From NCBI GenBank assembly GCA_017396005.1, contig JAFQNG010000068.1, positions 1 to 63,116 on the forward strand: a stretch of DNA of 63,116 nt. Direction: 5' to 3'. This stretch comes from Desulfovibrio sp. GTDB taxonomy: Bacteria > Desulfobacterota > Desulfovibrionia > Desulfovibrionales > Desulfovibrionaceae. The notes below the pieces were generated by a model. It searched no databases, was not told the DNA's origin, and worked only from the letters and a program-made list of their open reading frames with translations. This document shows, one piece after another, positions 45,915-60,927 of the stretch. The translations under genes were made by a program, and so were the position numbers. Numbering within the stretch: the first letter of the stretch is position 1; the number at the start of each line of letters is the position of its first letter.

Positions 45915-46319
45915 TTACCCTGCATTCAGATACTGCAGTATCTTTCTGCTCTGGTTTGAGACTGTCATACAAGACACTCCAAAAATACGCGAAATGTCAC
46001 CATAGTTCAGGCGTGTGCCTGTTGTGCCTCTATGGACATGACCGTTTCTGCTGGCTACATGCAGCAAACCCGCAGCCCAGCTTTCCGGCTTGCCGCTGTT
46101 CAGACGAATACTGTTCTTCCAGGCATGCAACAGCAGTTCCATGCAGATTTCCGCATAGTTCTCCGGTAGAGTGCCTGTATCAGCCCTTGCCAGTTTCTGA
46201 TAGATGGAGATAAAAATCTCTCTCTCAAAAGCGGGCACCTCGTCAATGTCCTTACCGTTTTTTTGCAGCATCTGCCCCAGTTTGGCATAGCTTTTTCTGC
46301 TGTCATAACAGACGCACAT
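45915..46319 (-). CDS. Small HTH-domain protein
   Basis: 134 residues. The C-terminal YGDISRIFGVSCMTVSNQSR is a helix-turn-helix, and the preceding region is helical (FEREIFISIYQKLARAD). I read it as a DNA-binding or nucleic-acid-associated protein of unknown target. The ATG at 46319 is chosen because it follows the upstream gene's stop by 16 bp with GGTG before it. A longer frame would overlap that gene. It is the last gene of the minus-strand arm with the GAF protein, exporter partner, TauE and regulator. Confidence 0.68.
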   Translation of the reverse strand: MCVCYDSRKSYAKLGQMLQKNGKDIDEVPAFEREIFISIYQKLARADTGTLPENYAEICMELLLHAWKNSIRLNSGKPESWAAGLLHVASRNGHVHRGTTGTRLNYGDISRIFGVSCMTVSNQSRKILQYLNAG

Positions 46320-46335
46320 ATAATCACCACTGTTT

Positions 46336-47466
46336 TCAGTTATCTTCTCTGCTGCCACCAGGTCCGTCCTCAAGGCGCAGTACATCCTGCCCGTATGCAT
46401 AATGCATGAGGCGGGGGCGCTCGGCTGAGAGCTTCAGCGCATTGATAAGACGGGCCATACGCCGTGTGCCTTCAATAAGGCCGCCCAAATGGCCTGCCAT
46501 ATCCTTGAGATCGGCATGAGCCAGACTGGCGCACAGCTCTCGGCTTAGTTTTTGTTCGTGCGAATCAGCGGCTGTACAGGCTTCCAGTTCCCTGCCCAAA
46601 CGTTTAATTCGGCCAAGAATTTCGTCAAGTTCTTCGAGCAGTTCACCGCAGTACTCAGCCTGATTGTGCATGATATGCAGCGTATTGTTGCCGTAGTGAG
46701 CCATGGCGCCAGCTGCTTTCTCCAGCGTGTCTCGGGCCAGAGCTATCCTGTGGCCCACAGTCAGCGAGACAATGCGGGCGAATTTGGTCAAGAATCGTTC
46801 ATCGTAGCTGTCGAAGCCGTTCTCGCGTCGTGTGTAGAGCTGCACCAGACCAAAAGCAGGGCGACTGCCGCGTTCTCGCAGCACAAAGACCAGACGGGAA
46901 CGATAGCCTTCCCTGTAGGCGGCACAGTCCAGTGAATCACCACCGCGTTCCAGGGCCTGAAGATTATTGGAAACTACATAACGCACATGTCCGCTTGCCA
47001 CGGCAGACATGACAGGGTGGCGATTGAAGCCTTCTTCCAGCCAGGGGGCCATAATGGGCAGGGAGGCACTGTCTATGCATTCTGCCGCGCGGGTTTCCCA
47101 ATCGCCCTGGGGGGTACGCAGACGGCAAACATACATCTCGGCATGCAGTGCATGTACCAGTATGTGGGCACTCTGGCGCAGCACATCATCAGGCGGCGCC
47201 ATCTGATCAGCTATGGTCAGCAGTTCGTGCGAAACACGCAGCAAGATCTCTGTATCCTGCCTGCATGTCGCTACAGAAGCCAGAAGATGCAGCAGGCCCC
47301 GCCAACTTTTGAGTGGGGTTCTGTGCACTTCAGGACGATAACCGGCATCAAGTTTGATTTTGGCAGCAGGCAGAAGGGCAAGAATAGCAGTACGCATTTC
47401 AGGCGGAGCCTGCTGCAGTAAAAAACTCAGTTCTGCCCGAAGCAGATGTGACGACAGCAGAAGCAC
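46336..47466 (-). CDS. GAF-domain protein with helical C-terminus (kinase-like without ATPase)
   Basis: 376 residues. Residues 75-240 are GAF-like (SHELLTIADQMAPPDDVLRQ at its start, GLVQLYTRRENGFDSYDERF at its end). Residues 240-365 form long helices resembling a histidine-kinase dimerisation region (MAHYGNNTLHIMHNQAEYCG with a candidate His), but no ATP-binding domain follows. It may accept phosphate or act as a sensor scaffold. It starts with GTG at 47466, just after a GC-rich hairpin. It belongs to the minus-strand arm of the TauE locus. Confidence 0.7.
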   Translation of the reverse strand: MLLLSSHLLRAELSFLLQQAPPEMRTAILALLPAAKIKLDAGYRPEVHRTPLKSWRGLLHLLASVATCRQDTEILLRVSHELLTIADQMAPPDDVLRQSAHILVHALHAEMYVCRLRTPQGDWETRAAECIDSASLPIMAPWLEEGFNRHPVMSAVASGHVRYVVSNNLQALERGGDSLDCAAYREGYRSRLVFVLRERGSRPAFGLVQLYTRRENGFDSYDERFLTKFARIVSLTVGHRIALARDTLEKAAGAMAHYGNNTLHIMHNQAEYCGELLEELDEILGRIKRLGRELEACTAADSHEQKLSRELCASLAHADLKDMAGHLGGLIEGTRRMARLINALKLSAERPRLMHYAYGQDVLRLEDGPGGSREDN

Positions 47467-47481
47467 AGGACAGACCTGCCT

Positions 47482-47506
47482 GCGGGGAGAGCAGTGCCCT
47501 CCCCGC
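47482..47506. terminator. GC-rich hairpin between the exporter partner and the GAF gene
   Basis: GCGGGGAG (47482-47489) pairs with CTCCCCGC (47499-47506), nine-base loop. On the minus strand it lies just after the membrane-protein gene and before the GAF gene. No T-run follows, so it may lower downstream expression or stabilise the transcript rather than stop it. Confidence 0.45.
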
Positions 47507-47521
47507 CTTTGGTGTGAAAGG

Positions 47522-48253
47522 TTAGCTTTCCTGTTTTGATGAAGATTTGGTCATGGCCAGACCGATACCTTCAAACAGCTCGAAGATGGCAAAACCGTAC
47601 CAGAGCGTATAGAGCACATAAAAGATAAGCATGCCGCTCATGAGCCAGATATGCTCGGATACTTTGGCCGGGGGTACACTATAGAAGTTGTTGCCTGGTT
47701 CCACGGCACGGCGAATGACCTGATCCACCACCTGAGCTTCACTGATCATGCCCTGCTTCTGCAGTTCCTTAATGGAAGGCTGCAGCAGGTACCACCAGGC
47801 AGCAGCTACCTTGAGGGCAGGTGTGCCGTTATATTTCTGCGTCACAGGGGCGGCTTCGTTATGATAGAGCTTGTCGGCGTCATCTGTAGCCGATGTCAGT
47901 ATGGCAGCCAGATTACCTTTAAAGCTGACTTTGCCGCCATCTGCTGCAGCTTCACTGATACCGGCAGTCTGCAGCAGTGTCACGGCCAGAGGCGCAAGGT
48001 CAGCCTTTTTCATGCTGACGGTGATCGCCACATCCTTGCCATCTACGGTTTTTATTTTGTCGCGAACGGCAGGGATAAAGTAGGACGAGCCTTTGGACAG
48101 TTCGTTGAATACGTTGTCCGCGTACTGCAGGCCTGTCAGACGATTGCCCTGTCCATCATTGAAAAGGGGCGTGAGCAACAGCACGAAGAGCACCAGGAAA
48201 GAAACCATCAGCAGGCTGCCCCGTACGAAGGGAGCTTTTTCATGAATAAGCAT
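47522..48253 (-). CDS. Membrane protein partner of the TauE exporter
   Basis: 243 residues with one N-terminal membrane segment (LLMVSFLVLFVLLLTPLF), a periplasmic domain of about 150 residues and one C-terminal membrane segment (WLMSGMLIFYVLYTLWYGFAIF). No enzyme motif is seen. Its start lies one base after the TauE stop, so the two are clearly translated together and probably form one transport unit. I do not know a function for the family. The large periplasmic part could bind the exported substrate. Confidence 0.75.
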   Translation of the reverse strand: MLIHEKAPFVRGSLLMVSFLVLFVLLLTPLFNDGQGNRLTGLQYADNVFNELSKGSSYFIPAVRDKIKTVDGKDVAITVSMKKADLAPLAVTLLQTAGISEAAADGGKVSFKGNLAAILTSATDDADKLYHNEAAPVTQKYNGTPALKVAAAWWYLLQPSIKELQKQGMISEAQVVDQVIRRAVEPGNNFYSVPPAKVSEHIWLMSGMLIFYVLYTLWYGFAIFELFEGIGLAMTKSSSKQES

Positions 48254-48254
48254 T

Positions 48255-49517
48255 TTACGCCTCCCCTCTCAATTTGCCGATATTGGCAAAGAACTTGCTG
48301 CAGACCCAGATGCCGAAGAAGGCTACAACAGCCCAGAAGACCACATTGCCTACATCTTCAATAATACCAACTACCTGAGGCGACCAGTTGAGCACTTCCA
48401 TTTCTACCAGTTTTTTGGGCAACGTGGCAGCACGGTTGATAAAACCGGCAATGATGGAAATCGCATAAAAGCCACGGATGTGTATGCCTTTGACCACCTT
48501 GGTAGTCAGAGCGCCGATCTGAATGCCCAGCAGCGAGCCCAGCAGCATGCCGATGGCCAGGGTGTAAAACACATAGCCGTATATGGCATACTGTCCTATG
48601 GCCGCAAAACCGGCAGTGAAGATGATCTGCAGAATATCCGTACCTACAGTGGTCATGGAAGACACACCGAAAATGTAGACGAACATGGGGAAGGTCACAA
48701 AACCGCCACCCACGCCCATGATGGCAGCCAGCAGGCCTACCACAACGCCACCAGCAGCCACAATCCATCCAGAAATACGGCGGCCACCAGGTACCAGATC
48801 TTCGTCAAAGGTGATCATGGGCGGCACGGCAATTTTCTGGATCTTTACAGAAAGGCCGGTCATGCCCGAACTGCCACCATGAGCATCCTGGCTGGCGCCT
48901 GTATTGCTACGGCTGGCCTTGAGGAAGTCAAACAGGGCATAGAAGCCCAAAAATCCCAGAAGCACAGCATAGATACTGCTGATGAAAAGCTCCGAAAGCA
49001 GGGGGTCGGCATTATAGAGGCCCTTGTTGATAGCCCCGCCGATGACCGTGCCCAGCACCGAGCCTGCCAGAAAAGCTATGGCCAGTTTGGCAGAAACGTT
49101 ACCGAGTTTCTTGTGTACCGTAGTACCCATGATGGCCTTGGCGAAGATATGGAAAAGGTCCGTACCCACAGCCAGAATACCCTTGACACCTACAGCCATG
49201 AGGGCCGGGGTAATGATAAAACCGCCACCTGCACCAATGCAGCCGGTGATCAGGCCTGCTGCCAGACCAACCGCGATGGACGCCAGGAAGATAGTGGTAG
49301 TATAGAAGGCCGGGGCATAGGCCGTCTTACCGCCAAGCATCTCGTGCGCTTCATAGGCTTCCGCAAGGCAGCCTGCCAGTACAGGCACGGCCAGTGCCAG
49401 CAGAATAAGCAGTTTCTTGCGGTTTTTCAGGATAGAGGTAGATACCTCCAGGTCCCACTGCGCGTAAGCCTGTGAGCCACGCAGCATGAATTCATACAAT
49501 TGTCTGCCAAAGCCCAT
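48255..49517 (-). CDS. TauE/SafE-family anion exporter
   Basis: 420 residues. The family transports sulfite, sulfoacetate or other organosulfur anions. Two related halves each carry a Gly-rich repeat (GCIGAGGGFIITPALMAVGV and IMGVGGGFVTFPMFVYIF). There are nine or so membrane segments and an extra N-terminal soluble stretch (about 1-30) and loop (200-270) longer than in short TauE proteins. TTGGAGGA precedes the ATG. It is read towards its membrane partner and away from the response regulator gene, with small palindromes in the 163-bp leader. Sulfite export would fit a sulfate or taurine reducer, but the substrate is inferred. Confidence 0.88.
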   Translation of the reverse strand: MGFGRQLYEFMLRGSQAYAQWDLEVSTSILKNRKKLLILLALAVPVLAGCLAEAYEAHEMLGGKTAYAPAFYTTTIFLASIAVGLAAGLITGCIGAGGGFIITPALMAVGVKGILAVGTDLFHIFAKAIMGTTVHKKLGNVSAKLAIAFLAGSVLGTVIGGAINKGLYNADPLLSELFISSIYAVLLGFLGFYALFDFLKASRSNTGASQDAHGGSSGMTGLSVKIQKIAVPPMITFDEDLVPGGRRISGWIVAAGGVVVGLLAAIMGVGGGFVTFPMFVYIFGVSSMTTVGTDILQIIFTAGFAAIGQYAIYGYVFYTLAIGMLLGSLLGIQIGALTTKVVKGIHIRGFYAISIIAGFINRAATLPKKLVEMEVLNWSPQVVGIIEDVGNVVFWAVVAFFGIWVCSKFFANIGKLRGEA

Positions 49518-49680
49518 ACATCCTCCAATATGTTTGCAAAACAGGGGGTCGCAGAGCGACCTGCCAAAGATGGAGGCAGTCTAGAACGGGCAGCATGGTG
49601 AGGCTATCAGGAGCTTCCTGATTTACTGACAGAAAACTCAGTGATTTCCCCATTGTAGTGCAGGGCAGAGATGAGTAGCT
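49518..49680 (-). promoter_or_regulatory. Leader of the TauE operon with small palindromes
   Basis: 163 bp between the LuxR-type regulator stop and the TauE start. It contains TCAGGA-GCT-TCCTGA (49607-49621), an inverted pair ACTGA/TCAGT (about 49624-49641) and GTCGC/GCGAC near the start codon. Any of these could be the target of the adjacent regulator. A sigma-54-type -24/-12 pair was looked for and did not have the right spacing. Confidence 0.4.
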
Positions 49681-50361
49681 TCAGACCTGCAGCATACCGT
49701 GGCGTATGGCAATTTTGACCAGATCACCCACGGATTCTGCCTTGAGTTTTGTCAGCAGATTATATTTGTGGCTTTCGACAGTCTTGGGGCTGATAAAAAG
49801 ATGTTGGGCAATGACCTTGATGCTTTTGCCGTCGGCCAGCAGGCGGAAGATTTCCTTCTCACGGGGGGAGAGCACACTGATGTCGACAGCATGCTCGTCA
49901 TGAGCTTCCAGCCGGGCACGCAGCATGGCGCTCAGACAGCCACCCGGATCAGGGCAGGTCAGAAATATTTCGTTCCTGCGCAGGCTTTCAATAGCCTTGA
50001 GCAGCACTTCCGGCGCTTCAGACTTGCGTACATGCCCCATGATACCCAGCTCCATGAGCTCAGGCAGGAAGCGCTGGTCTTCATGTCCTGTATAAATGAG
50101 GATGCGCGTCCTGGGCAGGGCCTGAAGGATGGCGCGGCTGGCTTCTACGCCATTCATTCCAGGCATGGTCAGATCCATAATGACTATGTGCGGCGTAAGA
50201 GATGCCGCCAGGGCCACGGCTTCGCTGCCGCTGCGTGCCATGCCAGTCACGCGAAGATGGGCGTACGGAGCCAGCAGGCTGCGTACGCCTTCCATAAGCA
50301 GCTTGTGGTCGTCCACCAGCAGAATGCGGCAGATGTCCTGCATAGGGCCTGCGGGCTTCAT
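49681..50361 (-). CDS. NarL/FixJ-type response regulator
   Basis: 226 residues. The N-terminal receiver has the phospho-acceptor Asp in IVIMDLTMPGMNG and the conserved Lys in HVRKSEAPE. The C-terminal LuxR-type HTH is SVLSPREKEIFRLLADGKSI and PKTVESHKYNLLTKL. GGGAGGACGC precedes the ATG. It sits at the centre of the locus, with only 36 bp to the divergent P1 gene and directly upstream of the TauE operon. It is the only DNA-binding response regulator in the cluster, so it is the likely output for the kinases encoded on the other arm. Confidence 0.93.
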   Translation of the reverse strand: MKPAGPMQDICRILLVDDHKLLMEGVRSLLAPYAHLRVTGMARSGSEAVALAASLTPHIVIMDLTMPGMNGVEASRAILQALPRTRILIYTGHEDQRFLPELMELGIMGHVRKSEAPEVLLKAIESLRRNEIFLTCPDPGGCLSAMLRARLEAHDEHAVDISVLSPREKEIFRLLADGKSIKVIAQHLFISPKTVESHKYNLLTKLKAESVGDLVKIAIRHGMLQV

Positions 50362-50397
50362 GCGTCCTCCCGGTTCAACGCCTCAGGTGGCGCCTAG

Positions 50398-51534
50398 ATG
50401 TTGTCAGCTGCAAACAGTCTTTTTGTCAAGCCTTTCCGGGGATTACGCGCTGTACTTGCCCGTTCGGCCAAGGCGGGGGAGGCTCTGCCCTGTGCGGATT
50501 TCCGGAATTTTCTGGCAGCCTGGAACGCCTTTCAGACCGCTATGGATGCAGCAGCAGGACAGAGCCCCGAAGCTGCAGCGCTCCTGGTGGCCCGGCAGGC
50601 CCTGCGGTGTGTCGACGCCTTGGAGGCTCTGGACCCGACCCCATGCCATGTTCTGCGGACCAGGCTGGCATCCTGGCTGTGCGGTATCCCTGAAGACTGT
50701 CGCGTGTCATCTTCAAAGCGGAGTCTGGACTGTACCTGTCTGCCCGGAGAACCGGATTTCGACGCAGCACATTGCAGTACACCGCGTGATGTGGCTGTTT
50801 TTTGTCATGCCAGAGCTGTGAAGCGCATGCTGGACCTGGCCGCTGCAGGACAGAAAAAAGCAGGGGTCAGGCAGTTGTGGGACGAAGTGCCCAAGCAGTT
50901 TTGGGCAGTGGATCTTGCCGATGCCTTTGCCCCTGAATCAGGGAGGGGAATCATTGCGGTAGAGCATATTGTCTCCCGTCCCATGCGTGCCATCTGGTAT
51001 GGCATGAATATTTTGCCGTGGCAGGGCCCGCCTGCTGTCAACGGACGGGGTTTTTTGTCTGTGCTGTTCGAGGCTACGGCTAATCCACAGCTGGACCCTG
51101 CCTTTGGCAAGGCTCTTTTCTTTGAGAAAAATCATTTTCTGCTTTCCAGTGATTACTGTCATATGCATTCCCGTTTCGGCTTCCATACCGTAGAGGTGGA
51201 GGCCCGTTTAGGACCACAGGCAAAGGAAAATCATCTGTTTTTCCGGTTGCGCGGCGGGGCTGCCAATTTGGAACGGCGTATGCTGCGAACCCGTTTTATC
51301 GCAGAAATGCTCGCGCCCTTTGGATTTACCGCGCAACTGCGCCATGATGTCGTCTGCGCCCGAAAGGGAGGCATCAACGCAGAAGAAGGGGAACGCCTGG
51401 CGGCTGTCATGGGCTATGTCACCATCCATACCCGCCAGCTGGATATGATCATGCAGGATGCAGCGCAGGTGACTGCCCGTCGAGAGGTGATACTGGCCCA
51501 TTGCCGGGCATTATACGCTGGACGGCCCCTGTAA
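50398..51534 (+). CDS. P1: stand-alone copy of the PEP-synthase-like C-terminal domain
   Basis: 378 residues. Residues from about 130 to the end align with the C-terminal 260 of the PEP-synthase-like protein two genes downstream (51959-54523). Both have HC....D..FCH, then SRPM.A.W.G....PW.GPPA, GF.S..FE...NP.L, a Gly-rich (R/K)GGAA(N/D)L.RR and (I/L)H(T/S)RQ.DM.MQD. Residues 1-120 are unrelated and helical. No ATP-grasp or phosphohistidine domain is present. It could be a second acceptor, a decoy or a subunit for the full protein. Function unknown. It is read with the receiver gene that follows 38 bp later. Confidence 0.8.
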   Translation: MLSAANSLFVKPFRGLRAVLARSAKAGEALPCADFRNFLAAWNAFQTAMDAAAGQSPEAAALLVARQALRCVDALEALDPTPCHVLRTRLASWLCGIPEDCRVSSSKRSLDCTCLPGEPDFDAAHCSTPRDVAVFCHARAVKRMLDLAAAGQKKAGVRQLWDEVPKQFWAVDLADAFAPESGRGIIAVEHIVSRPMRAIWYGMNILPWQGPPAVNGRGFLSVLFEATANPQLDPAFGKALFFEKNHFLLSSDYCHMHSRFGFHTVEVEARLGPQAKENHLFFRLRGGAANLERRMLRTRFIAEMLAPFGFTAQLRHDVVCARKGGINAEEGERLAAVMGYVTIHTRQLDMIMQDAAQVTARREVILAHCRALYAGRPL

Positions 51535-51572
51535 AAGCCCAAACAGTCAACGCTCTGGTACAAGGAGGAGGC

Positions 51573-51950
51573 ATGCGGGTACTTTTTGTGGACGACGAAA
51601 CTGAATTTCTGGAACTGATGAAAAAACGTCTGGTGCGTCGAAGCTTCAGCGTTGATACCGCTTCGGATGGGGAGAGTGCCCTGCGCCTGCTGGATGAGAC
51701 GCTGAACAGCGGTGAGAGCTTCGATGCCGTAGTCCTGGATGTGCGCATGCCGGGTACGGACGGCCTGGAAGTCCTCCGACAGATGAAGGAACGGCGTCCA
51801 GCGCTGCCGGTTATTCTGCTGACTGGTCATGCCAGTATGGGAGTGGCCATGCAGGGATTGGATCTGGGAGCGTATGACTATATGCTGAAGCCTGTAGGCA
51901 TCAATGAACTCATCATCAAGATAAGTGAGGCGGCCCGTATGGCCGCCTGA
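51573..51950 (+). CDS. Stand-alone receiver-domain response regulator
   Basis: 125 residues, a CheY-like receiver only. VDDETEFLELMKK carries the acidic pair, the phospho-acceptor Asp is in VVLDVRMPGTDG, the Thr is in LLTGHAS and the Lys is in MLKPVG. AAGGAGGAGGC precedes the ATG at 51573. It lies between P1 and the PEP-synthase-like gene. It is probably phosphorylated by the kinase encoded downstream, and its output is likely by protein contact. Confidence 0.93.
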   Translation: MRVLFVDDETEFLELMKKRLVRRSFSVDTASDGESALRLLDETLNSGESFDAVVLDVRMPGTDGLEVLRQMKERRPALPVILLTGHASMGVAMQGLDLGAYDYMLKPVGINELIIKISEAARMAA

Positions 51951-51958
51951 GACAGGGC

Positions 51959-54523
51959 ATGGCTTTTTGGCAATATTTGTGCCCATGGTGGAGAAAGAGA
52001 GGTGCGTCTGCTGATGTCGGGCAGGCAGAGCGCGAAGAAGCCTTGAAAAAGGCAGTGCGGCAACGCTGTGCTGCCTTTCGGCAGCTGCTTTCCGCCAACA
52101 AGCGCGCGCTGGAGGGCATGAGTGAGATGGAAGAACTGCTCTGCGGTGCACGTCTTTTTGGTATGGAGCATGTGCGCGCTGCTTCTACGCGTGTGACGGC
52201 TGCGGTTTTTCAGATGGTACGCGAGTTTCAGGCCCTGTCTCAGGGGAGCTGGCCAGGCCTGCCCGGTGCCTTGGAACGCATTGTTGCAGATATGGAGGTT
52301 CGCCTGGCCCGACCGCAGGATGTCAGCCCTGGGCCGTTACTCTTGCCCCTTCGAGAGCTCTCTCTGGCTGACGTTTCACTTGTGGGTGGCAAGATGGCCA
52401 GTCTTGGCGAAGTGGCGGTCCATGCAGGCTTGGATGTGCCAGATGGCTTTGCCGTAACTGTGGCTGCCTATGAGCGCTTCATGGCTTACAATGACCTGCG
52501 CGGTGAGCTGGAACACTGCATACGGGCGGCCAGTACCGCCGGACTGGATGCATTGTTCAGCCTCAGTACGGCCTTGCAGCAACGTGTACTGGCGGCTCAG
52601 CTGCCACCTGACCTCGAAGAAGCCATTACTGCTGCAGTGGCGGATATGCAGGCCCGTGCTGGAGAAGATCTGCTGTTGGCCGTACGCAGCAGCGCTGTAG
52701 GCGAAGATATGCCGGGGGTCTCTTTTGCCGGGCAGTTCCGCTCAGAGCTGAATGTACCGCCCGAAGAAGTCTGCCGTGTCTGGAAAGAGGTGGTGGCCTG
52801 CAAATACGCACTTGCCGCCATGACCTACCGCAGGCAACATGGCATTCCCGATCATGCCATGCCCATGGCCGTAGGAGTACTGGCCATGGTGCGGGCTTCT
52901 GCCGGCGGAGTGGCCTACAGTCGCGACCCTGTGGCTCCAGGACAGCAGGGAGAGCGTGTTGTCATCAATGCCGTACATGGCCTGCCTGTGGGCGTAGTGG
53001 ATGGTGCACAAGTTCCGCATGTCTATGTATGCAGCCATACCAATGCCCCGGAACTGCTGGAAACACGTCAGGCCGAAGGCCCCCTGCCTCTTGATGAAGG
53101 TCAGGCCCGGCGGCTGGCCCGTGTGGCTGTTGCCCTTGAGGAATACTATAATGCTCCGCAGGATGTGGAGTGGGCAATCGACAGCACAGATGGGAGGCTG
53201 GTCATTTTGCAGAGCAGACCTTTGCAAATAGCCTCTTCTCTGGATCTGACCCCCCATATGGACAGCCTTAATCAACTGCCGGTGCTGGCCGACGGCGGCG
53301 TGCCTGTTTCTCGTGGCCTAGTCTCAGGTACAGCTTTTGTGGCCCGCAGAGAAGCCGATATGCTGGCCTTTCCTGAAGGTGCTATTCTGGTGGTGGAGCG
53401 GGCCTGGCCCCGCTGGGCCCCGCTTCTGAGCCGGGCTGCAGGACTGGTGAGCGAGAGCGGAGGTGTAGCCGGGCATCTGGCATCAGTAGCGCGGGAGTAT
53501 GCCCTGCCTGCGGTTTTCAGTCTTCCCGGGGCCTGCCGTCTGCTTGACAGTGCAGGAGCAGTCACGCTTGATGCCCATAACGGCCGTGTACTGAGTGGTC
53601 TTCCGCCACAGGGGGCCTCTCTGACATCTTCTGCGGCCCCCCCCTGCCTCATGGCAGGCAGCCCTGTATACCGCTGCCTGCAGGAGGTCGCCCAGTTCGT
53701 AACGCCCCTGCATCTGCTTTGGCCGGATGCGCCGGATTTCACCCCGGAGCACTGCCGCAGTTTGCACGACATCATCCGTTTCTGCCATGAAAAGGCTGCC
53801 GGTCTGGTGTTCAGGGGTGAAGGGCTGAACGGGCACATGGGTAAGCAACTCAGGGTCGGTGCCAGGTTGCAATACTGGGTGGTAGACATGGGCGGGGGCT
53901 TTGACGGAGTTGTTGCCGGGCCCGAGGTAGAGCTGCGTCGTATTGCCAGCCGTCCCATGCTGGCTTTCTGGAAGGGTCTGACGGCCGTACCCTGGGCCGG
54001 GCCGCCTGCAACGGATGCTGGGGGATTCATGAGCGCTGTCTTTGAAAGCGCCATGAACCCCGCTCTGGAAAGTACCGCAGCCAATGATATGGCTGAGCGC
54101 AATATCTTTATTATTGATGCGCATTACATGCTGCTGCAGGCCCGGTATGGCTATCACTTCTGTACGATTGAGTGCCGGGCTGCAGGAGAGATACATGAAA
54201 ACTTTGTCTCTTTCCAGTTCAAGGGTGGGGCCGCAGACCTGCAACGCCGTTGCCTGAGAGCAGCTCTGCTGGCAGAGCTGCTGGAGGAGCAGGGTTTTCG
54301 CAGTGAAGTTCGCCAGGATGCTCTTTTTGCCATCGCCGAAGGCCTGGATGAGGGGGAGACCTTGCAGAAAGCCGCTCTGCTGGGCTATGTGCTTCTGCAC
54401 AGCCGTCAGACGGATATGCTCATGCAGGATCAGAACCGGGTGGAGGTGCTCCGTCGAACATGGCGCACAGACATGGCAGCTCTGGTGCAGGACTGGTCGC
54501 AGTCCGGGAATTTGAAATATTGA
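51959..54523 (+). CDS. P2: PEP-synthase-like protein with a substituted acceptor domain
   Basis: 854 residues. Residues 1-130 are helical and unassigned. About 132-455 is the PPDK-N ATP-grasp domain (LVGGKMASLGE, AVRSSAVGEDMPGVSFAGQF, QDVEWAID with LVILQSRPLQ at its end). About 490-580 is the phosphohistidine swivel domain with His506 in SGGVAGHLASVAREYALPAV. The PEP/pyruvate TIM-barrel that normally follows is absent. Instead residues 595-854 form the domain also found in P1. Known relatives of this plan include PEP synthase, PPDK and rifampin phosphotransferase, which differ mainly in the acceptor domain. A dikinase or phosphotransfer role with an unknown acceptor is inferred. Confidence 0.82.
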   Translation: MAFWQYLCPWWRKRGASADVGQAEREEALKKAVRQRCAAFRQLLSANKRALEGMSEMEELLCGARLFGMEHVRAASTRVTAAVFQMVREFQALSQGSWPGLPGALERIVADMEVRLARPQDVSPGPLLLPLRELSLADVSLVGGKMASLGEVAVHAGLDVPDGFAVTVAAYERFMAYNDLRGELEHCIRAASTAGLDALFSLSTALQQRVLAAQLPPDLEEAITAAVADMQARAGEDLLLAVRSSAVGEDMPGVSFAGQFRSELNVPPEEVCRVWKEVVACKYALAAMTYRRQHGIPDHAMPMAVGVLAMVRASAGGVAYSRDPVAPGQQGERVVINAVHGLPVGVVDGAQVPHVYVCSHTNAPELLETRQAEGPLPLDEGQARRLARVAVALEEYYNAPQDVEWAIDSTDGRLVILQSRPLQIASSLDLTPHMDSLNQLPVLADGGVPVSRGLVSGTAFVARREADMLAFPEGAILVVERAWPRWAPLLSRAAGLVSESGGVAGHLASVAREYALPAVFSLPGACRLLDSAGAVTLDAHNGRVLSGLPPQGASLTSSAAPPCLMAGSPVYRCLQEVAQFVTPLHLLWPDAPDFTPEHCRSLHDIIRFCHEKAAGLVFRGEGLNGHMGKQLRVGARLQYWVVDMGGGFDGVVAGPEVELRRIASRPMLAFWKGLTAVPWAGPPATDAGGFMSAVFESAMNPALESTAANDMAERNIFIIDAHYMLLQARYGYHFCTIECRAAGEIHENFVSFQFKGGAADLQRRCLRAALLAELLEEQGFRSEVRQDALFAIAEGLDEGETLQKAALLGYVLLHSRQTDMLMQDQNRVEVLRRTWRTDMAALVQDWSQSGNLKY

Positions 54524-54536
54524 TGCGGGAGGGGAT

Positions 54537-56276
54537 ATGGGCGGATCCATCAAAAAACGCATCCTTCGCTTGCTGGACCTGTCAGCAGGTCTTTCTCCTG
54601 CTCATTACCGGGCTCTGCGCTGGCTCATGACTGTTCTCATGGTGACGGTCTCGGTAGCTCCGCTGCTGATCCTTTCAGCCTTCAACCATATACAGTACAC
54701 AAGCACGCTGGAGAGAGAGCTGGAAAGGCCACTTCACACACTGGTCAGCAAGTCGCGCGCCTCTCTGGAGCTTTTTCTGGGCGAGCGTTTTTCCATGGTT
54801 AGTTTTATAGCCCATGCCTACAGCTTTGCAGACCTGAATGATCCTGTCATCTTTCGCCATGTTTTTCTGGCTCTGACCAGCGAGTTCAGAGGATTTGTGG
54901 ATATGGGGCTGGTCAATGGTCAGGGACGGCAGGTGGACTATGTGGGGCCGTATAAACTCAAAGGGGCTGATTATGCCGACCAGCCCTGGCTGCGTGAAGC
55001 CGAGATAAAAGGGCGCTATATCAGCAATGTTTTTCTGGGGCTGCGGGACTTCCCACATATGATCATGGCCGTACACCGTCTGGAACCTGACGGGACCCGC
55101 TGGACTCTGCGTGTGACCATCGATATCACTCAGCTGGAGCAGTCGCTCATGCCTGCCGGGCCGGACTTGGAGACCGATATTTTTCTTTGTGACAACTCCG
55201 GCGTTCTTCAGACCAGCTCCCGATTGTACGGCAAAGCGCTGGACACACTGCCCCTGATACTCCCCCCGGCAGGGAGTGAGCCTACTGTCCGCCGCCTGAC
55301 TGATAACAATGGGAAGCAGCTTCTGGTGGCTTCAGCCCTGCTGACAGGGACAGATCTTCGGTTGATGGCCGTCAAGTCGGGTCTTGCAGCCTGGCGGCCC
55401 TGGGGGAGCCTGCGTACAGAGCTTTTACTGGTGCTCTGTGGCGGTATAGTCATTATCGTGCTGGTTTCTCATGTGCTGATGAAGGCTCTTGTCGGGCGTC
55501 TGCAGGCTGCTGACGAGCATCGTGCAGCTATCTTTGCGCAGATGGAGCATCAGCAGAAGCTGTCTTCCATAGGTAGACTGGCGGCCGGAGTAGCCCATGA
55601 GGTCAACAACCCTCTGGCTATTATTTATGAAAAGGCCGGGCTCGCTCTGGATATGCTGCGTCTGCAGGAGGGTGCAGCCATTGAACAGCGTCGGGAACGC
55701 CTGATTTCCCTGCTGGAAGGTATTGAAAATACTGTGGAACGGGCGCGTGGTATCACCCATCGGCTACTGGGTTTTTCCCGCAGGATGGAGGCCAGCCGTC
55801 AGTCTCTGCAGCTGGCTGACGTCATTGGTGAAAGTATGGAGTTTCTCAGGCGTGAGGCTGGTAATCGCGGCGTCAGCATGGCCGTTCACCTGCCTGAAAA
55901 TCTGCCATCGGTTATTTCTGACCGTGGTCAGCTGCAGCAGGTTTTTCTCAATGTACTGGGCAATGCCCTGGATGCTCTCAGTGATCTGAAGGAAGGGGGG
56001 CGTATTGAAGTAGGTGGTAAGCTGGCTGATAACGATACGGTGGTTATCACTATTCGGGATAACGGCAAGGGCATGTCACCGGAAATGCTCAGGCATATTT
56101 TTGAGCCCTTCTATTCCAGCAAAAAAGATAAGGGTACCGGCCTTGGCATGTTTATTACCTATGCCATCATGAGACGGCTTGGTGGGGATATAGTGGTACA
56201 GAGCCAGGAGGAGCTCGGTACCACAGTACATATCACCCTGCCGCTGACACCGCCTGATGATATGGAGGTTATATAA
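54537..56276 (+). CDS. Sensor histidine kinase with periplasmic Cache-like domain
   Basis: 579 residues. A first membrane segment (WLMTVLMVTVSVAPLLIL), a periplasmic Cache-like sensor (about 45-290, DYADQPWLREAEIKGRYIS), a second membrane segment (LLLVLCGGIVIIVLVSHVLM), HisKA with phospho-acceptor His354 in GVAHEVNNPLAIIYE, and an ATPase domain (FLNVLGNALDALSD, IRDNGKGMSPE, GTGLGMFITYAIM). It is the only complete kinase of the cluster and the likely donor for the four receiver proteins. Its stop overlaps the next receiver start (ATAATG). The periplasmic ligand is unknown. Confidence 0.93.
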   Translation: MGGSIKKRILRLLDLSAGLSPAHYRALRWLMTVLMVTVSVAPLLILSAFNHIQYTSTLERELERPLHTLVSKSRASLELFLGERFSMVSFIAHAYSFADLNDPVIFRHVFLALTSEFRGFVDMGLVNGQGRQVDYVGPYKLKGADYADQPWLREAEIKGRYISNVFLGLRDFPHMIMAVHRLEPDGTRWTLRVTIDITQLEQSLMPAGPDLETDIFLCDNSGVLQTSSRLYGKALDTLPLILPPAGSEPTVRRLTDNNGKQLLVASALLTGTDLRLMAVKSGLAAWRPWGSLRTELLLVLCGGIVIIVLVSHVLMKALVGRLQAADEHRAAIFAQMEHQQKLSSIGRLAAGVAHEVNNPLAIIYEKAGLALDMLRLQEGAAIEQRRERLISLLEGIENTVERARGITHRLLGFSRRMEASRQSLQLADVIGESMEFLRREAGNRGVSMAVHLPENLPSVISDRGQLQQVFLNVLGNALDALSDLKEGGRIEVGGKLADNDTVVITIRDNGKGMSPEMLRHIFEPFYSSKKDKGTGLGMFITYAIMRRLGGDIVVQSQEELGTTVHITLPLTPPDDMEVI

Positions 56277-56659
56277 TGCGCATTCTACTGGCCGATGACG
56301 AACGGGATTTCGTAGAGACACTGGCAGAACGTCTGGCTCTGCGCGGGCATACGGTGCGTGTTGTTCTTGACGGGCCTTCCGCTCTGGCTGCGCTGGAGGA
56401 ATCTCAGCCCGATGTGCTGGTACTGGACTGGTTTATGCCTGGCATGTCTGGGCTGGACGTGCTGGAGCGCGTCAGCGTCATTTATCCTGCCCTGCCGGTC
56501 ATTTTGTTGACCGGTCATGGTCAGATGGAAGACGGTGATGATATTCCGCAGGCACAAGCCCGAATAGTTCTGACAAAACCGTTGCGCTTCGAGACGTTTC
56601 TGGAAATACTGGAAGACGCCGTTCATGGGACGTTTCAGCGACAGGGAGGGGACTCATGA
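56276..56659 (+). CDS. Stand-alone receiver-domain response regulator
   Basis: 127 residues, receiver only. The phospho-acceptor Asp is in LVLDWFMPGMSG, the Thr in LLTGHGQ and the Lys in VLTKPLRF. It shares the unusual opening DDERxFVETLAERLxxRG with the receiver at 57291, so the two are tandem duplicates. It overlaps the kinase by 1 bp and the degenerate kinase gene by 4 bp. No output domain is present. Confidence 0.92.
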   Translation: MRILLADDERDFVETLAERLALRGHTVRVVLDGPSALAALEESQPDVLVLDWFMPGMSGLDVLERVSVIYPALPVILLTGHGQMEDGDDIPQAQARIVLTKPLRFETFLEILEDAVHGTFQRQGGDS

Positions 56660-57294
56660 GCTACACATGTATGGCTCGTCTGCTGGCTTCGGCAGTGCAT
56701 GACATGCGTAATATTCTGGCCGTCATTCGTGAATCGGCTGGCCTGGCCCAGGATCTGACCTCTCTGGATAGTACCGGCCCGGTACAGGAAGAGCATAAAA
56801 AAGAGCTTGCATCATCGCTGGATGAAGTTCGCCGTCAGGTACTTCTGGCTGCACAGCTGGCCGAGGGTCTGGAATTTATGGCTCAGGCTGATATGGTGGA
56901 GGGGGCAGCCTCCTGTGATTTGGCCAGGGTTTGTCGTCTGTTCTGCCGTATGGCCACGCGCCATGCCAGAGCAACGCAGATACGGCTGCAGAGTAGTGAA
57001 CATGAAGAGCCTGTCTGGGCTGCAGTGTCTCCGCTCGATGTGCTGCAGGCTCTTCTGGATATACTGGACGTATGCATTGCTGTTGGCGGCAGAGTTGATT
57101 TGTCCTTTACTGCTGCCAGAAGGCTTCACGACGAATACGTGGAAGTGCGTGTGTCTGGCGGGGAAAATACGGCCCTGGCTCTTTCAGCTCTGACAGGTAA
57201 TCCTCTGCAGGATAAGAGCTGTCAATGCCTGTTACGCCCTGGTAGCGAGGCCGGCACATTTATTCTTGTGTGGCGTTCCAAGGAGGTAGCATGA
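56656..57294 (+). CDS. Degenerate histidine-kinase-like protein (phosphotransfer-like)
   Basis: 212 residues. An H-box is present (ASAVHDMRNILAVIRESA), with the candidate phospho-acceptor His17 at the start of a helical hairpin. The following region (about 115-205) has the order of a kinase ATPase domain, but the N-box and Gly boxes are missing (LLDILDVCIAVGG where the N-box should be). It probably cannot bind ATP. A phosphotransfer or phosphatase role between receivers is inferred. It overlaps both neighbouring receiver genes by 4 bp, so strict co-production is expected. Confidence 0.78.
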   Translation: MSYTCMARLLASAVHDMRNILAVIRESAGLAQDLTSLDSTGPVQEEHKKELASSLDEVRRQVLLAAQLAEGLEFMAQADMVEGAASCDLARVCRLFCRMATRHARATQIRLQSSEHEEPVWAAVSPLDVLQALLDILDVCIAVGGRVDLSFTAARRLHDEYVEVRVSGGENTALALSALTGNPLQDKSCQCLLRPGSEAGTFILVWRSKEVA

Positions 57295-57683
57295 GCCTCA
57301 AGGGTATCAAAGTTTTGCTTGTGGATGATGAACGGCGTTTTGTGGAGACCCTGGCCGAACGTTTGAGCATGCGCGGGCTGGCCCCGCGAGTGGCTCATGA
57401 TGGTCAACAGGCCCTGAAAGCGGTAACCATGCCTACTGATGTTATCGTTCTGGATCTGCGTATGCCCGGCATGGATGGCTTCGAGGTCTTGCGCAGTGTG
57501 AAGCAGAACAATCCGAAGGTACAGGTGATTATTCTGACAGGGCACGGCGGTGACGGTGAAGAAGAAATGGCCTATCGCATGGGGGCCTGTGACTTTCTCA
57601 AAAAGCCCATAGATATTGATGATCTTTTGCAGAGCATCCGGCTAGCCTGCACGCAACAGTTCAAATCAGACGTTTTTCATTGA
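57291..57683 (+). CDS. Stand-alone receiver-domain response regulator
   Basis: 130 residues, receiver only. VLLVDDERRFVETLAE is the acidic pocket, VIVLDLRMPGMDG holds the phospho-acceptor Asp, IILTGHGGDGEEE the Thr and FLKKPIDIDDLL the Lys. It is a tandem duplicate of the receiver at 56276. AAGGAGGTAGC precedes the ATG. It is the last gene of the arm. Confidence 0.93.
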   Translation: MSLKGIKVLLVDDERRFVETLAERLSMRGLAPRVAHDGQQALKAVTMPTDVIVLDLRMPGMDGFEVLRSVKQNNPKVQVIILTGHGGDGEEEMAYRMGACDFLKKPIDIDDLLQSIRLACTQQFKSDVFH

Positions 57684-57861: not shown

Positions 57862-60800
57862 GTGGGCAGAGGCAGGAGCAGCATTTATTTTGACAAGCAG
57901 GACAGGGATATCCTTGCTCTGGTTAATCGCATACAGGAGTCTCAGACTTCCCCCGGGCAGAGCAGACTCTCTGCTTTGCCCGGTTCTGTGATCAGCACAC
58001 AATCCCCCTCTTCCGACCGTCTTTTTGATCCCAACCTGCATCCTCACGGTATCAAGGAGATGGTAGGCACCCCAGTCTCGCGCATGGCCTATGCCGTTAT
58101 CAATCTCCTGCATAATCTTGAAGCCGGTGGTACTCAGGCCAGAGATCGCCTGCTGGCTCTGCAAACCCTCTATGATGAGGTGCTCAACAGCGCTCATTCT
58201 ACCCTGCGGCGTAATACGGCGCGTGTGCTCGTACAAATCATGAAAAGTCTGGTGCGCGCTCATGGGCAACGTCTGACGCAACTTAAGCTGGCACATGATT
58301 TCAGACGCGTAGCTAAGGGTACGCCGCGCGTCGTGCGACAGATGCTGAACCGCTATCATCTGCCTGAAATGCCGGAGGAATGGAATCAGGTAGCTTTTGA
58401 TGACCATGTCTATGACGCCAATACGAAGGGCCGCAAGACGCCCACGCACCTTATCATGGATGCCTGGATTAAAGGCTTGCGTAAGTTGACCGTAGCCTAT
58501 CAGTACTGGGTAGACCCAGAAGCGGCTTGGGAACTACTGCGTGCGGCAGAGATAACAGGCATAGCCGTACGCATTGGTCTGGAATTTCAGACGCCTTTTT
58601 ATGACCGCTTTGTCAATATCTTTTGGATACCACGCGGCTTCAGTTCCAATGAGGATTTTCTGGACTTTTTGCACAGCCCAAAACTGGCAGAGCTCATGCG
58701 ACAGGGCAAATACGTGCTGCGCTGGCGCGAAGAACGCATCCTGCGCATCCTTGCCATGTGGAACGAGTCGCAACGTCCGCGTCTTGCAGATACATGGGGT
58801 GTAGCCATACCTGAGCTGAGCGCTCGTGAATTTCTGGATTTTGTGGGCCGGGGGCAGCCTTCACGTCAGTACCTGAGCGAATGCCTTCACCGGCATGTTA
58901 TGCCTGCCCTGGAAGTTCGAGCTCATTTTCTGATGGAGAAATCAGATGACGAAGCCCTGGCCGAGCTGGACTTTCTGGAAAGCATTAGTCCGGAATACAT
59001 CTTGGACAACTGGCTTTCGCCTGACAAGCATCCAGAGCTTCCTGATATGCGTCGCCCTGTGGCCATGGAGGAAATGCCGGCTCTATTACGCCTTTCTCCG
59101 GCAGAACTGGTTTCAGAACTGCAGGCTCTCAACCCTGGTTATCGTATGGTGCTGGTAACATCTCGTCTGCGGGTAGAGGATGTCATGGAGTTGCTCTATG
59201 ACTGTGGGGGGGGGATTTCTCATCTGGAGATATTTAATATGAAAGGCTGGGTAGGCGGCAAGATGCCTGACCTGGCGGCCATAGGCGAGCTGCAGCGTGC
59301 CCTGACCCTGGGACAGGGCGCACGGGTTAAACAGATGGTGCATCAGATGCTGCGCAAGATGGAAGCCAGTGGCGACAAGACGCGAGCAGCCAAGTTTCAG
59401 GAAATTTTACATAATCTGCCCACATTATGGGCTCATTACCGCAACAATCCTCTCAAATCACGCCTGGGTACAAGTTCGGCCAGCCGACGTACATTTGGCA
59501 TGGGGCTGGTACTCAAAGACACCCTGCCCCGTCGTGCATTACGCGTACTGCGTCGTAAAACATGGGAAAATCAGCCTATACCCATACACTATCCGGTAGA
59601 AGAACTAATAATTTTCCGTAAACCTGAAAATCCCTCTGTCTGGCAGCGCGTGGGGAGCAGATTGAGCTGGCTGCCGGGCTGTTGCCATTTGGGCATGAAA
59701 CAGCGGCGTGAATGGCAGAACGCAAGTGAGGAATGTCGAGTCAGCCAGCAGGGCAATGTGGCTAATCTTGGTGGCATAACATCCTTTACAGGTAATAAGC
59801 TGCTGCAGAAACAAGCTACGGTTAACAAGACTGCACCTCTTGATCTGAGTTATCTCAATAGCACCGCCAGCAACTGCTGCAAGGTCTTGCTGGGTTTCAT
59901 ACCGGCCTTTTTCTCCTTTTACTATACGCAGAGCTGGTGGTTTCTAGCCTGGTTCGGCCCCCTCATCTGGTTCGGCATAACAGGTTTCCGTAATGTGGTA
60001 CAAATGGTACTGGCCGCCAAGGGGGCCACGCGTGGCACTCTCATACAGTGGAAGGGACAGGTCAATATCAACCGTATTTGTGATTCCCTTATGTACACCG
60101 GCATTTCGGTTTTACTGCTGGAAGTCCTAGTGCGCGTTATACTGCTGCAAAACATTCTCAACGTGACCGTGGCCGAAAATCCCCTCTTTGTCTTTACAGC
60201 TCTAAGTACCATCAATGGCTTGTACATTTTCAGCCATAACATTTTTCGGGGCTTCCCCAGACAGGCAGCCATCGGCAACCTTTTTCGTAGTGTACTGGCT
60301 ATCCCTGTAGCTTCGTCCTACAATATGCTGCTGTATACTATACTTCCCTGTATGGGCGTGGCAGATCCGGCCCTCTATCTGGTGCCCAGTGCGGCAGTCA
60401 TTTCAAAGATGGCTTCTGATACGGTAGCTGCCGTCATCGAAGGGCATGCCGACAGCAAAGTCAACCTGCGAATGCGTCGCTGGGACTATAAAAGCAAGCT
60501 GGACAGCCTTTTTTTTTGCTGTACCCGGCTGGAGATGCTTTTCCCACAGGAGGACGCACTGGTCCATCTCTCCCATCCCGGCGGCCTGGCAGGACGTGGT
60601 GGCAGCAGAGCCCGCGAACTGGAAACTGCTTTCATCATCCATGCTCTGGACCTGATGTATTTCTGGTATTACCAGCCCCGAGCACAGGAGGCCTTTCGCC
60701 AGGTGGTACGCGCCCTGCCCGAAGCTGAACGTCGTGTACTTGTCCGTGTTCAGCTTGTATTGACACGTGAACGCGAGATCAGTCAGATGATGGTGGATGG

Positions 60801-60927
60801 CCTGCTGGGGCGGCACTTTTCACGACCCCTGGCCTTTTATCTGGATAAACGTAAAGGCTATCTCAAAAAAATGGTCAAGGCCTGTCGCCTGTCCAAAGGC
60901 CGTGAGCAGAGCCGGGCAGCACTCTGA
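57862..60927 (+). CDS. Very large membrane protein of unknown function
   Basis: 1021 residues, not assigned to a family I can name. Residues 1-640 are mostly soluble and helical (PVSRMAYAVINLLHNLEAGG, AWELLRAAEITGIAVRIGLE). Residues about 670-880 hold six to seven membrane segments (LLGFIPAFFSFYYTQSWWFL, LYTILPCMGVADPALYLVPS). The last 140 are charged and helical. GTG start at 57862 with TGGGG six bases upstream. It follows the signalling cluster after 178 bp and ends at a strong terminator, so it is a single unit. Confidence 0.75.
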   Translation: MGRGRSSIYFDKQDRDILALVNRIQESQTSPGQSRLSALPGSVISTQSPSSDRLFDPNLHPHGIKEMVGTPVSRMAYAVINLLHNLEAGGTQARDRLLALQTLYDEVLNSAHSTLRRNTARVLVQIMKSLVRAHGQRLTQLKLAHDFRRVAKGTPRVVRQMLNRYHLPEMPEEWNQVAFDDHVYDANTKGRKTPTHLIMDAWIKGLRKLTVAYQYWVDPEAAWELLRAAEITGIAVRIGLEFQTPFYDRFVNIFWIPRGFSSNEDFLDFLHSPKLAELMRQGKYVLRWREERILRILAMWNESQRPRLADTWGVAIPELSAREFLDFVGRGQPSRQYLSECLHRHVMPALEVRAHFLMEKSDDEALAELDFLESISPEYILDNWLSPDKHPELPDMRRPVAMEEMPALLRLSPAELVSELQALNPGYRMVLVTSRLRVEDVMELLYDCGGGISHLEIFNMKGWVGGKMPDLAAIGELQRALTLGQGARVKQMVHQMLRKMEASGDKTRAAKFQEILHNLPTLWAHYRNNPLKSRLGTSSASRRTFGMGLVLKDTLPRRALRVLRRKTWENQPIPIHYPVEELIIFRKPENPSVWQRVGSRLSWLPGCCHLGMKQRREWQNASEECRVSQQGNVANLGGITSFTGNKLLQKQATVNKTAPLDLSYLNSTASNCCKVLLGFIPAFFSFYYTQSWWFLAWFGPLIWFGITGFRNVVQMVLAAKGATRGTLIQWKGQVNINRICDSLMYTGISVLLLEVLVRVILLQNILNVTVAENPLFVFTALSTINGLYIFSHNIFRGFPRQAAIGNLFRSVLAIPVASSYNMLLYTILPCMGVADPALYLVPSAAVISKMASDTVAAVIEGHADSKVNLRMRRWDYKSKLDSLFFCCTRLEMLFPQEDALVHLSHPGGLAGRGGSRARELETAFIIHALDLMYFWYYQPRAQEAFRQVVRALPEAERRVLVRVQLVLTREREISQMMVDGLLGRHFSRPLAFYLDKRKGYLKKMVKACRLSKGREQSRAAL

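What the first reader, a model, noticed from the sequence alone, without database searches (positions are those of the whole stretch)
46336..57683. Two-armed locus joining a TauE exporter, a PEP-synthase-like protein and a multi-part phosphorelay
Twelve genes face away from a 36-bp centre. Seen directly: exporter, membrane partner, GAF protein and LuxR-type regulator on one strand; P1, three stand-alone receivers, P2 (ATP-grasp plus phosphohistidine), one full kinase and one degenerate kinase on the other, several with 1-4 bp overlaps. Known: the domains separately. Inference: kinase-to-receiver signalling controls, or is controlled by, an ATP-driven phosphohistidine protein, with the regulator driving the exporter. 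I know of no described system with this combination.
Basis: partly seen in the sequence, partly recalled or inferred. Interest (0 to 1): 0.82.

Follow-up and report, generated by a model that had tools for sequence, protein, structure and literature searches.

The report
Sulfate-reducer transporter locus with phosphohistidine enzyme
In a Desulfovibrio-type bacterium, an anion transporter and its membrane partner lie beside a signalling relay and an ATP-using phosphohistidine protein that carries an undescribed domain; related sets recur in many sulfate-reducing bacteria and may govern how they take up sulfur compounds.

Summary
The locus is real: 11 genes (not 12), two arms, a 36-bp centre, 1-4 bp overlaps. 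P2 keeps ATP-grasp and phosphohistidine motifs but shows no PEP/pyruvate barrel, so it is not a PEP synthase. P1 ends a decay series: full-length relatives lost ATP motifs and catalytic His but kept that domain, which matches no Pfam or PDB profile here.
The neighbourhood is conserved. The membrane partner follows TauE in 35 of 35 loci; a P2-family gene lies within 4.2 kb in 17 of 26 genus-level genomes; TauE, partner and P2 recur together in 15 of 20 loci outside the order. In 297 phylum genomes the domain tracks AprA (101 both, 6 domain only, 18 AprA only, 172 neither; phylogeny uncorrected).
The combination is not undescribed: the D. vulgaris/G20 'nitrate cluster' (PMC4001038) has TauE, PEPS-like protein, lone receiver and kinase; insertions there give nitrate resistance. 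The window is a paralogous variant with another TauE subfamily.
Best reading: a two-component-controlled sulfur-oxyanion permease that needs a phosphohistidine enzyme. Substrate, direction and phosphotransfer are inferred.

The parts
46336..47466 (-). GAF-like protein (376 aa) with a C-terminal kinase-like H-box (AMAHYGNNTL) and no ATPase domain found
   Evidence: H-box kept in L025 and L038/L045; GAF match only weak
47522..48253 (-). membrane partner of TauE (243 aa), hydrophobic segments at 6-34 and 208-227, no Pfam or NCBIfam match
   Evidence: homologue directly after TauE in 35 of 35 neighbourhoods; 72 of 297 phylum genomes
48255..49517 (-). TauE/SafE family permease (420 aa)
   Evidence: PF01925 E 5.5e-37, 128 bits; same subfamily at E <= 1e-60 in 144 of 199 genomes of the order
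49681..50361 (-). LuxR-type response regulator
   Evidence: PF00072 and PF00196; also upstream of TauE in L025, L038 and L104
50398..51534 (+). P1: stand-alone copy of the P2-family C-terminal domain with an N-terminal stub; no ATP-grasp, no swivel His
51573..51950 (+). R1, stand-alone receiver
   Evidence: PF00072 E 6.1e-28; start chosen by ribosome-binding site
51959..54523 (+). P2: PPDK_N ATP-grasp (140-427), PEP-utilising mobile domain with H506 (471-542), new C-terminal domain (about 570-846)
54537..56276 (+). membrane histidine kinase with weak dCache match
   Evidence: PF02518, PF00512, PF02743 below cut-off; H-, N- and G-boxes
56276..56659 (+). R2, stand-alone receiver
   Evidence: PF00072 E 2.1e-22
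56656..57294 (+). kinase-like protein with H-box (AVHDMRN) and no ATPase match; candidate phosphotransfer protein
57291..57683 (+). R3, stand-alone receiver
   Evidence: receiver matches in NCBIfam and motif

Best explanation
The locus encodes a signal-controlled permease for a sulfur oxyanion (sulfate, thiosulfate or sulfite). TauE and its membrane partner form the transport unit. P2 phosphorylates its swivel histidine from ATP, as PEP synthase does, but passes the phosphoryl group to, or reads it out through, its own C-terminal domain instead of making PEP, and this is needed for the permease to work. P1 is a catalytically dead relative that kept that C-terminal domain, probably a regulatory or assembly subunit. 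The membrane kinase, the three receivers and the ATPase-less H-box protein adjust P2/P1, and the LuxR-type regulator adjusts transcription. Shown here: gene content, conserved linkage, intact motifs in P2, their loss in P1, co-occurrence with AprA. From a paper on the paralogous nitrate cluster: insertions in the PEPS-like gene and in TauE both give nitrate resistance. Inferred: substrate, import direction, physical contact and every phosphotransfer step.
For: P2 has PPDK_N and mobile domain, no barrel match; its swivel sequence SESGGVAGH fits T/SxxGGxxxH given for these enzymes in PMC12167813 (passage). Membrane partner follows TauE in 35 of 35 loci, P2 family near TauE in 17 of 26 genus-level genomes, TauE, partner and P2 together in 15 of 20 loci outside the order. 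In five genomes 7 of 14 P2-family clusters have a TauE gene within 8 kb against 0.54 at random. The family also lies beside other TauE types and DASS symporters. C-terminal domain and AprA co-occur. In D. vulgaris, insertions in TauE, receiver and PEPS-like genes of the nitrate cluster each gave growth unaffected by 100 mM nitrate (PMC4001038).
Against: No biochemistry, structure or expression data; structure prediction was off. The phenotypes are from a paralogous cluster whose TauE is only about 20% identical, and insertions upstream could act by polarity on the PEPS-like gene, so a need for TauE itself is not proven. Pooled and single-mutant results there partly disagree. 7 of 14 clusters lack TauE within 8 kb, and L132, L142 and L143 show no obvious anion transporter. 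In most fetched loci of the genus the P1-HK-R1-P2 core lies apart from TauE. Co-occurrence tests ignore phylogeny.
Confidence: 0.45

Rival explanations
1. P2 is a small-molecule dikinase, as rifampin phosphotransferase and HpeHI are: the C-terminal domain binds a small substrate which P2 phosphorylates with ATP, and TauE moves that substrate or a product. The two-component genes only control expression.
For: Domain order ATP-grasp plus swivel plus an extra domain resembles these enzymes (PMC12167813 passages).
Against: No match of the C-terminal domain to known acceptor domains; a dead P1 and ATP-dead tandem copies are odd for a plain enzyme; transporters beside the family are of several types.
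Confidence: 0.2
2. P2 senses the adenylate state (ATP, AMP, phosphate) and feeds it to the receivers and regulators; it controls gene expression, not the permease itself.
For: Receivers sit next to P2 (R1 eight bp upstream) and receivers fused to a cytidylate-kinase-like domain occur beside the family in L103 and L109.
Against: Most receivers here have no output domain; TauE and P2 are adjacent in many genomes whereas DNA-binding regulators differ between loci.
Confidence: 0.2
3. The grouping is accidental: the genes lie close by descent or by a mobile island without working together.
For: In most fetched loci of the genus the core and TauE are apart; the locus has 56% GC against 50% for the rest of the window.
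Against: 0 of 20,000 random placements reach the observed linkage; TauE, partner and P2 stay together in 15 of 20 loci of other families; different TauE types go with different P2 clades.
Confidence: 0.05

Closest known systems
'Nitrate cluster' DVU0251-DVU0245 / Dde_0597-Dde_0605 (PMC4001038; abstract and sections 14, 16, 17 read)
   Same: TauE permease, PPDK_N plus mobile-domain protein, stand-alone receiver, histidine kinase. A relative of its PEPS-like protein (L127) aligns with P2 at 29% over 818 aa, C-terminal domain included.
   Different: Other TauE subfamily (20% over 234 aa), membrane protein not recognisably related, PtxB-like protein and phosphatase absent from the window; window has P1, three receivers, LuxR regulator, GAF-like protein.
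PEP synthase (PpsA, TIGR01418)
   Same: ATP-grasp and phosphohistidine swivel domain
   Different: No PEP/pyruvate barrel match; 270.6 bits against a cut-off of 739.75
Rifampin phosphotransferase and HpeHI/PpsAB-type dikinases (PMC12167813, passages)
   Same: ATP-grasp plus swivel, barrel replaced by another domain
   Different: C-terminal domain has no profile match to solved structures; no known substrate
TSUP/TauE transporters of sulfate reducers (PMC5840216, passages)
   Same: PF01925 family; the review reports putative TSUP transporters in all 44 genomes it examined
   Different: The passages seen do not mention a PEPS-like partner or this membrane partner

Membership tests
Nitrate cluster (DVU0251-0245 type) | TauE, PPDK_N/mobile-domain protein, lone receiver and histidine kinase together | tested here: met
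Nitrate cluster (DVU0251-0245 type) | PtxB-like protein and dual-specificity phosphatase in the cluster, TauE of that subfamily | tested here: not met
   BLAST of the L127 set against the window's gene products found no PtxB or phosphatase; TauE 20%
Nitrate cluster (DVU0251-0245 type) | Loss gives nitrate but not nitrite resistance | not testable with these tools
   phenotype known only for DvH and G20 (PMC4001038)
PEP synthase | ATP-grasp and swivel motif T/SxxGGxxxH | tested here: met
   motif from PMC12167813 passage
PEP synthase | PEP/pyruvate barrel and equivalog score | tested here: not met
   no barrel family in Pfam scan; below cut-off in NCBIfam
Rph/HpeHI-type dikinase | Known acceptor-binding domain | tested here: inconclusive
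   no sequence-profile match; folds could not be compared
TauE/SafE (PF01925) | Profile score over the curated cut-off | tested here: met
   128.1 bits against 32.6
TauE/SafE (PF01925) | Sulfite or sulfonate export | not testable with these tools
   needs transport assay
Spo0B/ChpT-type phosphotransferase (recalled parallel; no call) | Conserved H-box without ATPase domain | tested here: met
   for the kinase-like protein
Spo0B/ChpT-type phosphotransferase (recalled parallel; no call) | Four-helix dimer fold and phosphotransfer activity | not testable with these tools
   structure prediction off

The most novel reading that the evidence does not exclude
Sulfate-reducing Desulfobacterota gate, or help to energise, their sulfur-oxyanion permeases with a dedicated family of PEP-synthase-like phosphohistidine proteins bearing a new domain, each paired with its own transporter type (several TauE subfamilies, DASS) and set by stand-alone receivers; dead paralogues such as P1, and ATP-dead but His-keeping paralogues in tandem arrays, form a PTS-like phosphorelay outside the PTS. 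This would supply an ATP-sensitive control of sulfate uptake.
Probability: 0.3. Interest if true: 0.88.

Novelty: new variant of a known kind. Interest (0 to 1): 0.72.

Why it matters
How sulfate reducers take up sulfate and related anions is poorly resolved; a review could find only TSUP-type candidates in some genomes (PMC5840216, passages). Here a protein domain without a Pfam or PDB match follows the AprA marker across the phylum sample and often sits beside anion permeases of several types. If the coupling is real, it names genes with which control of sulfate or thiosulfate entry can be tested, and it would explain a published nitrate-resistance locus that bears on souring control.

Tried and rejected
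Ordinary PEP synthase or pseudogene: rejected by missing barrel, low equivalog score and intact motifs. P1 as an unrelated orphan: rejected. The nitrate-cluster TauE as a close relative of the window's TauE: rejected, 20% identity. Fusion of P2 to receivers or TauE as a Rosetta stone: in the 1833-aa frame of L188 P2 matches begin at residue 961 and the part before it overlaps kinase and receiver ORFs on the other strand; the other long frames of L189, L190 and L192 gave P2-family matches only. TauE in viral contigs: no relative. C-terminal domain on plasmids: no match. Fold of the C-terminal domain: structure prediction was off; profile searches gave nothing. A neighbour in L181 was first aligned as a membrane partner (A5) and dropped as unrelated (A6). 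Literature beyond the nitrate cluster: searches listed no other paper that I recognised as describing this combination; they cover only the held open-access library, and the listings were read, not every paper. In PMC10102598 (2023 D. vulgaris mutant library) the words TauE, phosphoenolpyruvate and PEP do not occur in the main text.
Full report
What is there. The window is contig C37 of a 2.26-Mb, 100-contig assembly, 85.6% complete. Between 46336 and 57683 lie eleven genes, four leftward and seven rightward around a 36-bp gap. Leftward: a LuxR-type response regulator, TauE (PF01925, 128 bits), a 243-aa protein with a hydrophobic segment near each end, and a GAF-like protein whose GAF match is below the cut-off. 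Rightward: P1, receiver R1, P2, a membrane histidine kinase with a weak dCache match, receiver R2, a kinase-like protein with only a HisKA match, and receiver R3. The receivers keep the Asp motif and the kinase keeps H-, N- and G-boxes.

P1 and P2 are one family. P1's residues 116-362 match P2's 589-832 at 36% identity, E 9e-48. P2 has PPDK_N and the PEP-utilising mobile domain, then a C-terminal domain without Pfam match where PEP synthase has its PEP/pyruvate barrel (the place of the barrel is recalled). A profile of 28 such domains (A4) found nothing convincing in the PDB (best E 0.21), and none of the 28 members had a convincing Pfam match (best E 0.045).

Active enzyme, dead partner. In an alignment of 97 family members, 75 keep the swivel histidine (H506 of the window's P2) and 22 do not: 15 have Arg, one Glu, one Tyr, five a gap. 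The 22 are the 19 rows of the P1 clade (SH-aLRT 100, quick tree) and L106, L108 and L111, where the family gene near TauE in other genera has decayed. In the window's genus most P1 relatives that were fetched are full-length frames (853-989 aa) with ATP motifs and His gone; in L034/L049 and L057 they are 641-647 aa without the swivel; in the window, L025 and L038/L045 a short N-terminal part and the C-terminal domain remain. Mean pairwise identity among 12 chosen full-length P1 is 77.5% in the C-terminal domain against 52.6% in the ATP-grasp; for 12 P2 it is 70.7% and 65.5%. So P1 appears to be kept for its C-terminal domain. In three loci with three tandem family genes (L151, L153, L154) the middle copy lost ATP motifs but kept the His.

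Conservation of the window's locus. A match to full-length P2 at E <= 1e-10 occurs in 55 of 61 genomes, the own one included; this query can also hit ordinary PEP synthases. The whole arrangement is in L025 and in L045 (Desulfovibrio sp. OH1186_COT-070; L038 is the same contig). Most other loci fetched from the genus have full-length P1, a kinase, R1 and P2 together without TauE nearby, in L028 beside flagellar genes. In a sister genus (L104) LuxR regulator, TauE, partner, dead P1, kinase, R1 and active P2 run on one strand. I examined 35 TauE neighbourhoods: the membrane partner follows TauE in 35 of 35, and a P2-family gene lies within 4.2 kb in 22 of 35. Because some were fetched for their nearness, the better figure is the genus-level list: 17 of its 26 TauE-bearing genomes (28 searched). 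One of the nine counted as negative (G162) was not fetched, it only lacks a listed match on its contig, and for six of the 28 I had already seen coordinates. A receiver-domain match lies within about 230 bp upstream of TauE on the same strand in 17 of 35, not counting the LuxR type.

Beyond the order. The C-terminal domain occurs in 107 of 297 genomes sampled across the phylum, 65 of 198 genera, up to eight per genome, in 36 families besides the window's. Of 20 loci from 20 such families (chosen among the top-scoring rows, hence biased to the profile), 15 carry TauE, a homologue of the window's membrane partner and a P2-family gene together, in most of them with receivers before TauE; one (L186) has a shorter TauE, one (L187) is of the nitrate-cluster type, one (L181) has a TauE fragment some genes away, two (L178, L185) none. 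The membrane partner is found in 72 of 297 genomes; 69 of these have the C-terminal domain, and at least 34 have it within 3.5 kb (the rows were cut, so this is a lower bound).

Other transporters. The family also lies beside other TauE types (with DUF4881 in L136 and L140; with Alph_Pro_TM in L139 and L151, and 4 of 77 scanned neighbours match it) and beside DASS Na+/sulfate symporters (L138, L152, L182; 4 of 77 neighbours). In five genomes with all C-terminal-domain matches listed, 7 of 14 clusters have a TauE gene within 8 kb; random placement gives 0.54 and reached 7 in 0 of 20,000 trials; at 5 kb it is 4 of 14 against 0.37, reached in 8 of 20,000. For this I used 38 of the 41 PF01925 rows of these genomes, leaving out two below the cut-off and the second half of one frame, and left out G000, which is in contigs. 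Seven clusters have no TauE within 8 kb (L028, L041, L132, L138, L141, L142, L143). L138 has a DASS gene and L141 a partial nitrate-cluster set; L132 (MscS, CorA), L142 (pyrimidine genes) and L143 show no obvious anion transporter among the neighbours scanned. This counts against a universal rule.

Link to sulfate reduction. AprA (TIGR02061, E <= 1e-150) and the C-terminal domain: 101 genomes with both, 6 domain only, 18 AprA only, 172 neither; Fisher p 4e-52. Within the order the TauE subfamily is in 143 of 180 genomes with AprA and in 1 of 19 that I classed by hand as lacking it (11 without match, 8 with weak ones; the exception, G110, is 77% complete); p 1e-10. Neither test corrects for phylogeny.

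Known relative. PMC4001038 (abstract and sections 14, 16, 17 read) describes the 'nitrate cluster' of D. vulgaris and D. alaskensis: TauE permease, hypothetical protein, PtxB-like protein, kinase, lone receiver, PPDK_N/mobile-domain protein, phosphatase. Isolated D. vulgaris insertion mutants in TauE, the hypothetical gene, the receiver and the PEPS-like gene grew alike with and without 100 mM nitrate and no better than the control with nitrite; the phosphatase mutant was inhibited by nitrate; pooled data for DVU0250 and DVU0248 disagreed. G20 mutants were mildly sick on thiosulfate (unpublished data cited there) and the authors propose a leaky thiosulfate transporter. I found homologous clusters in that gene order in unnamed relatives (L112, L127, L129, L130, L131, L133, L144) and partial ones in L125 and L126. 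The PEPS-like protein of L127 is 29% identical to P2 over 818 aa; its TauE is another subfamily and its membrane protein not recognisably related. So the kind is known genetically, its mechanism is not, and the window is a paralogous variant.

Mechanism. Because insertions in the PEPS-like gene and in TauE look alike in the published cluster (with the caveat of polarity from upstream insertions), and because the family keeps company with anion transporters of several types, I favour P2 as a positive factor for the permease, working by ATP-derived phosphohistidine, with P1 as a dead regulatory subunit and the kinase and receivers as its control. The order HK, R2, H-box protein, R3 would suit a kinase-receiver-phosphotransferase-receiver relay (recalled parallels: Spo0B, ChpT), and the H-boxes of both ATPase-less proteins are conserved in L025 and L038/L045. 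Contact, direction and substrate are inferred.

Noticed in passing
window 57862-60927 (+): Large protein (1021 aa, no Pfam match) 178 bp after R3; among the 96 sources compared its only homologue (36% over 1018 aa) lies beside another P2-family cluster, L138.
   Followed up: partly
window 45915-46400 (-): Small gene after the GAF-like protein, 57% identical to one at the same place in L025.
   Followed up: no
L151, L153, L154: Three tandem P2-family genes after TauE and a membrane protein; the middle copy lost ATP motifs but kept the swivel His, which suggests relay between copies.
   Followed up: partly
L103:6332-7630 (-), L109:12878-14131 (+): Receivers fused to a cytidylate-kinase-like domain (PF13189) beside P2-family genes.
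   Followed up: no
window 46336-57683: GC is 56% in the locus against 50% in the rest of the window.
   Followed up: no
L106, L108, L111: The family gene near TauE has decayed (His to Arg or Tyr, or swivel lost) in three other genera.
   Followed up: partly
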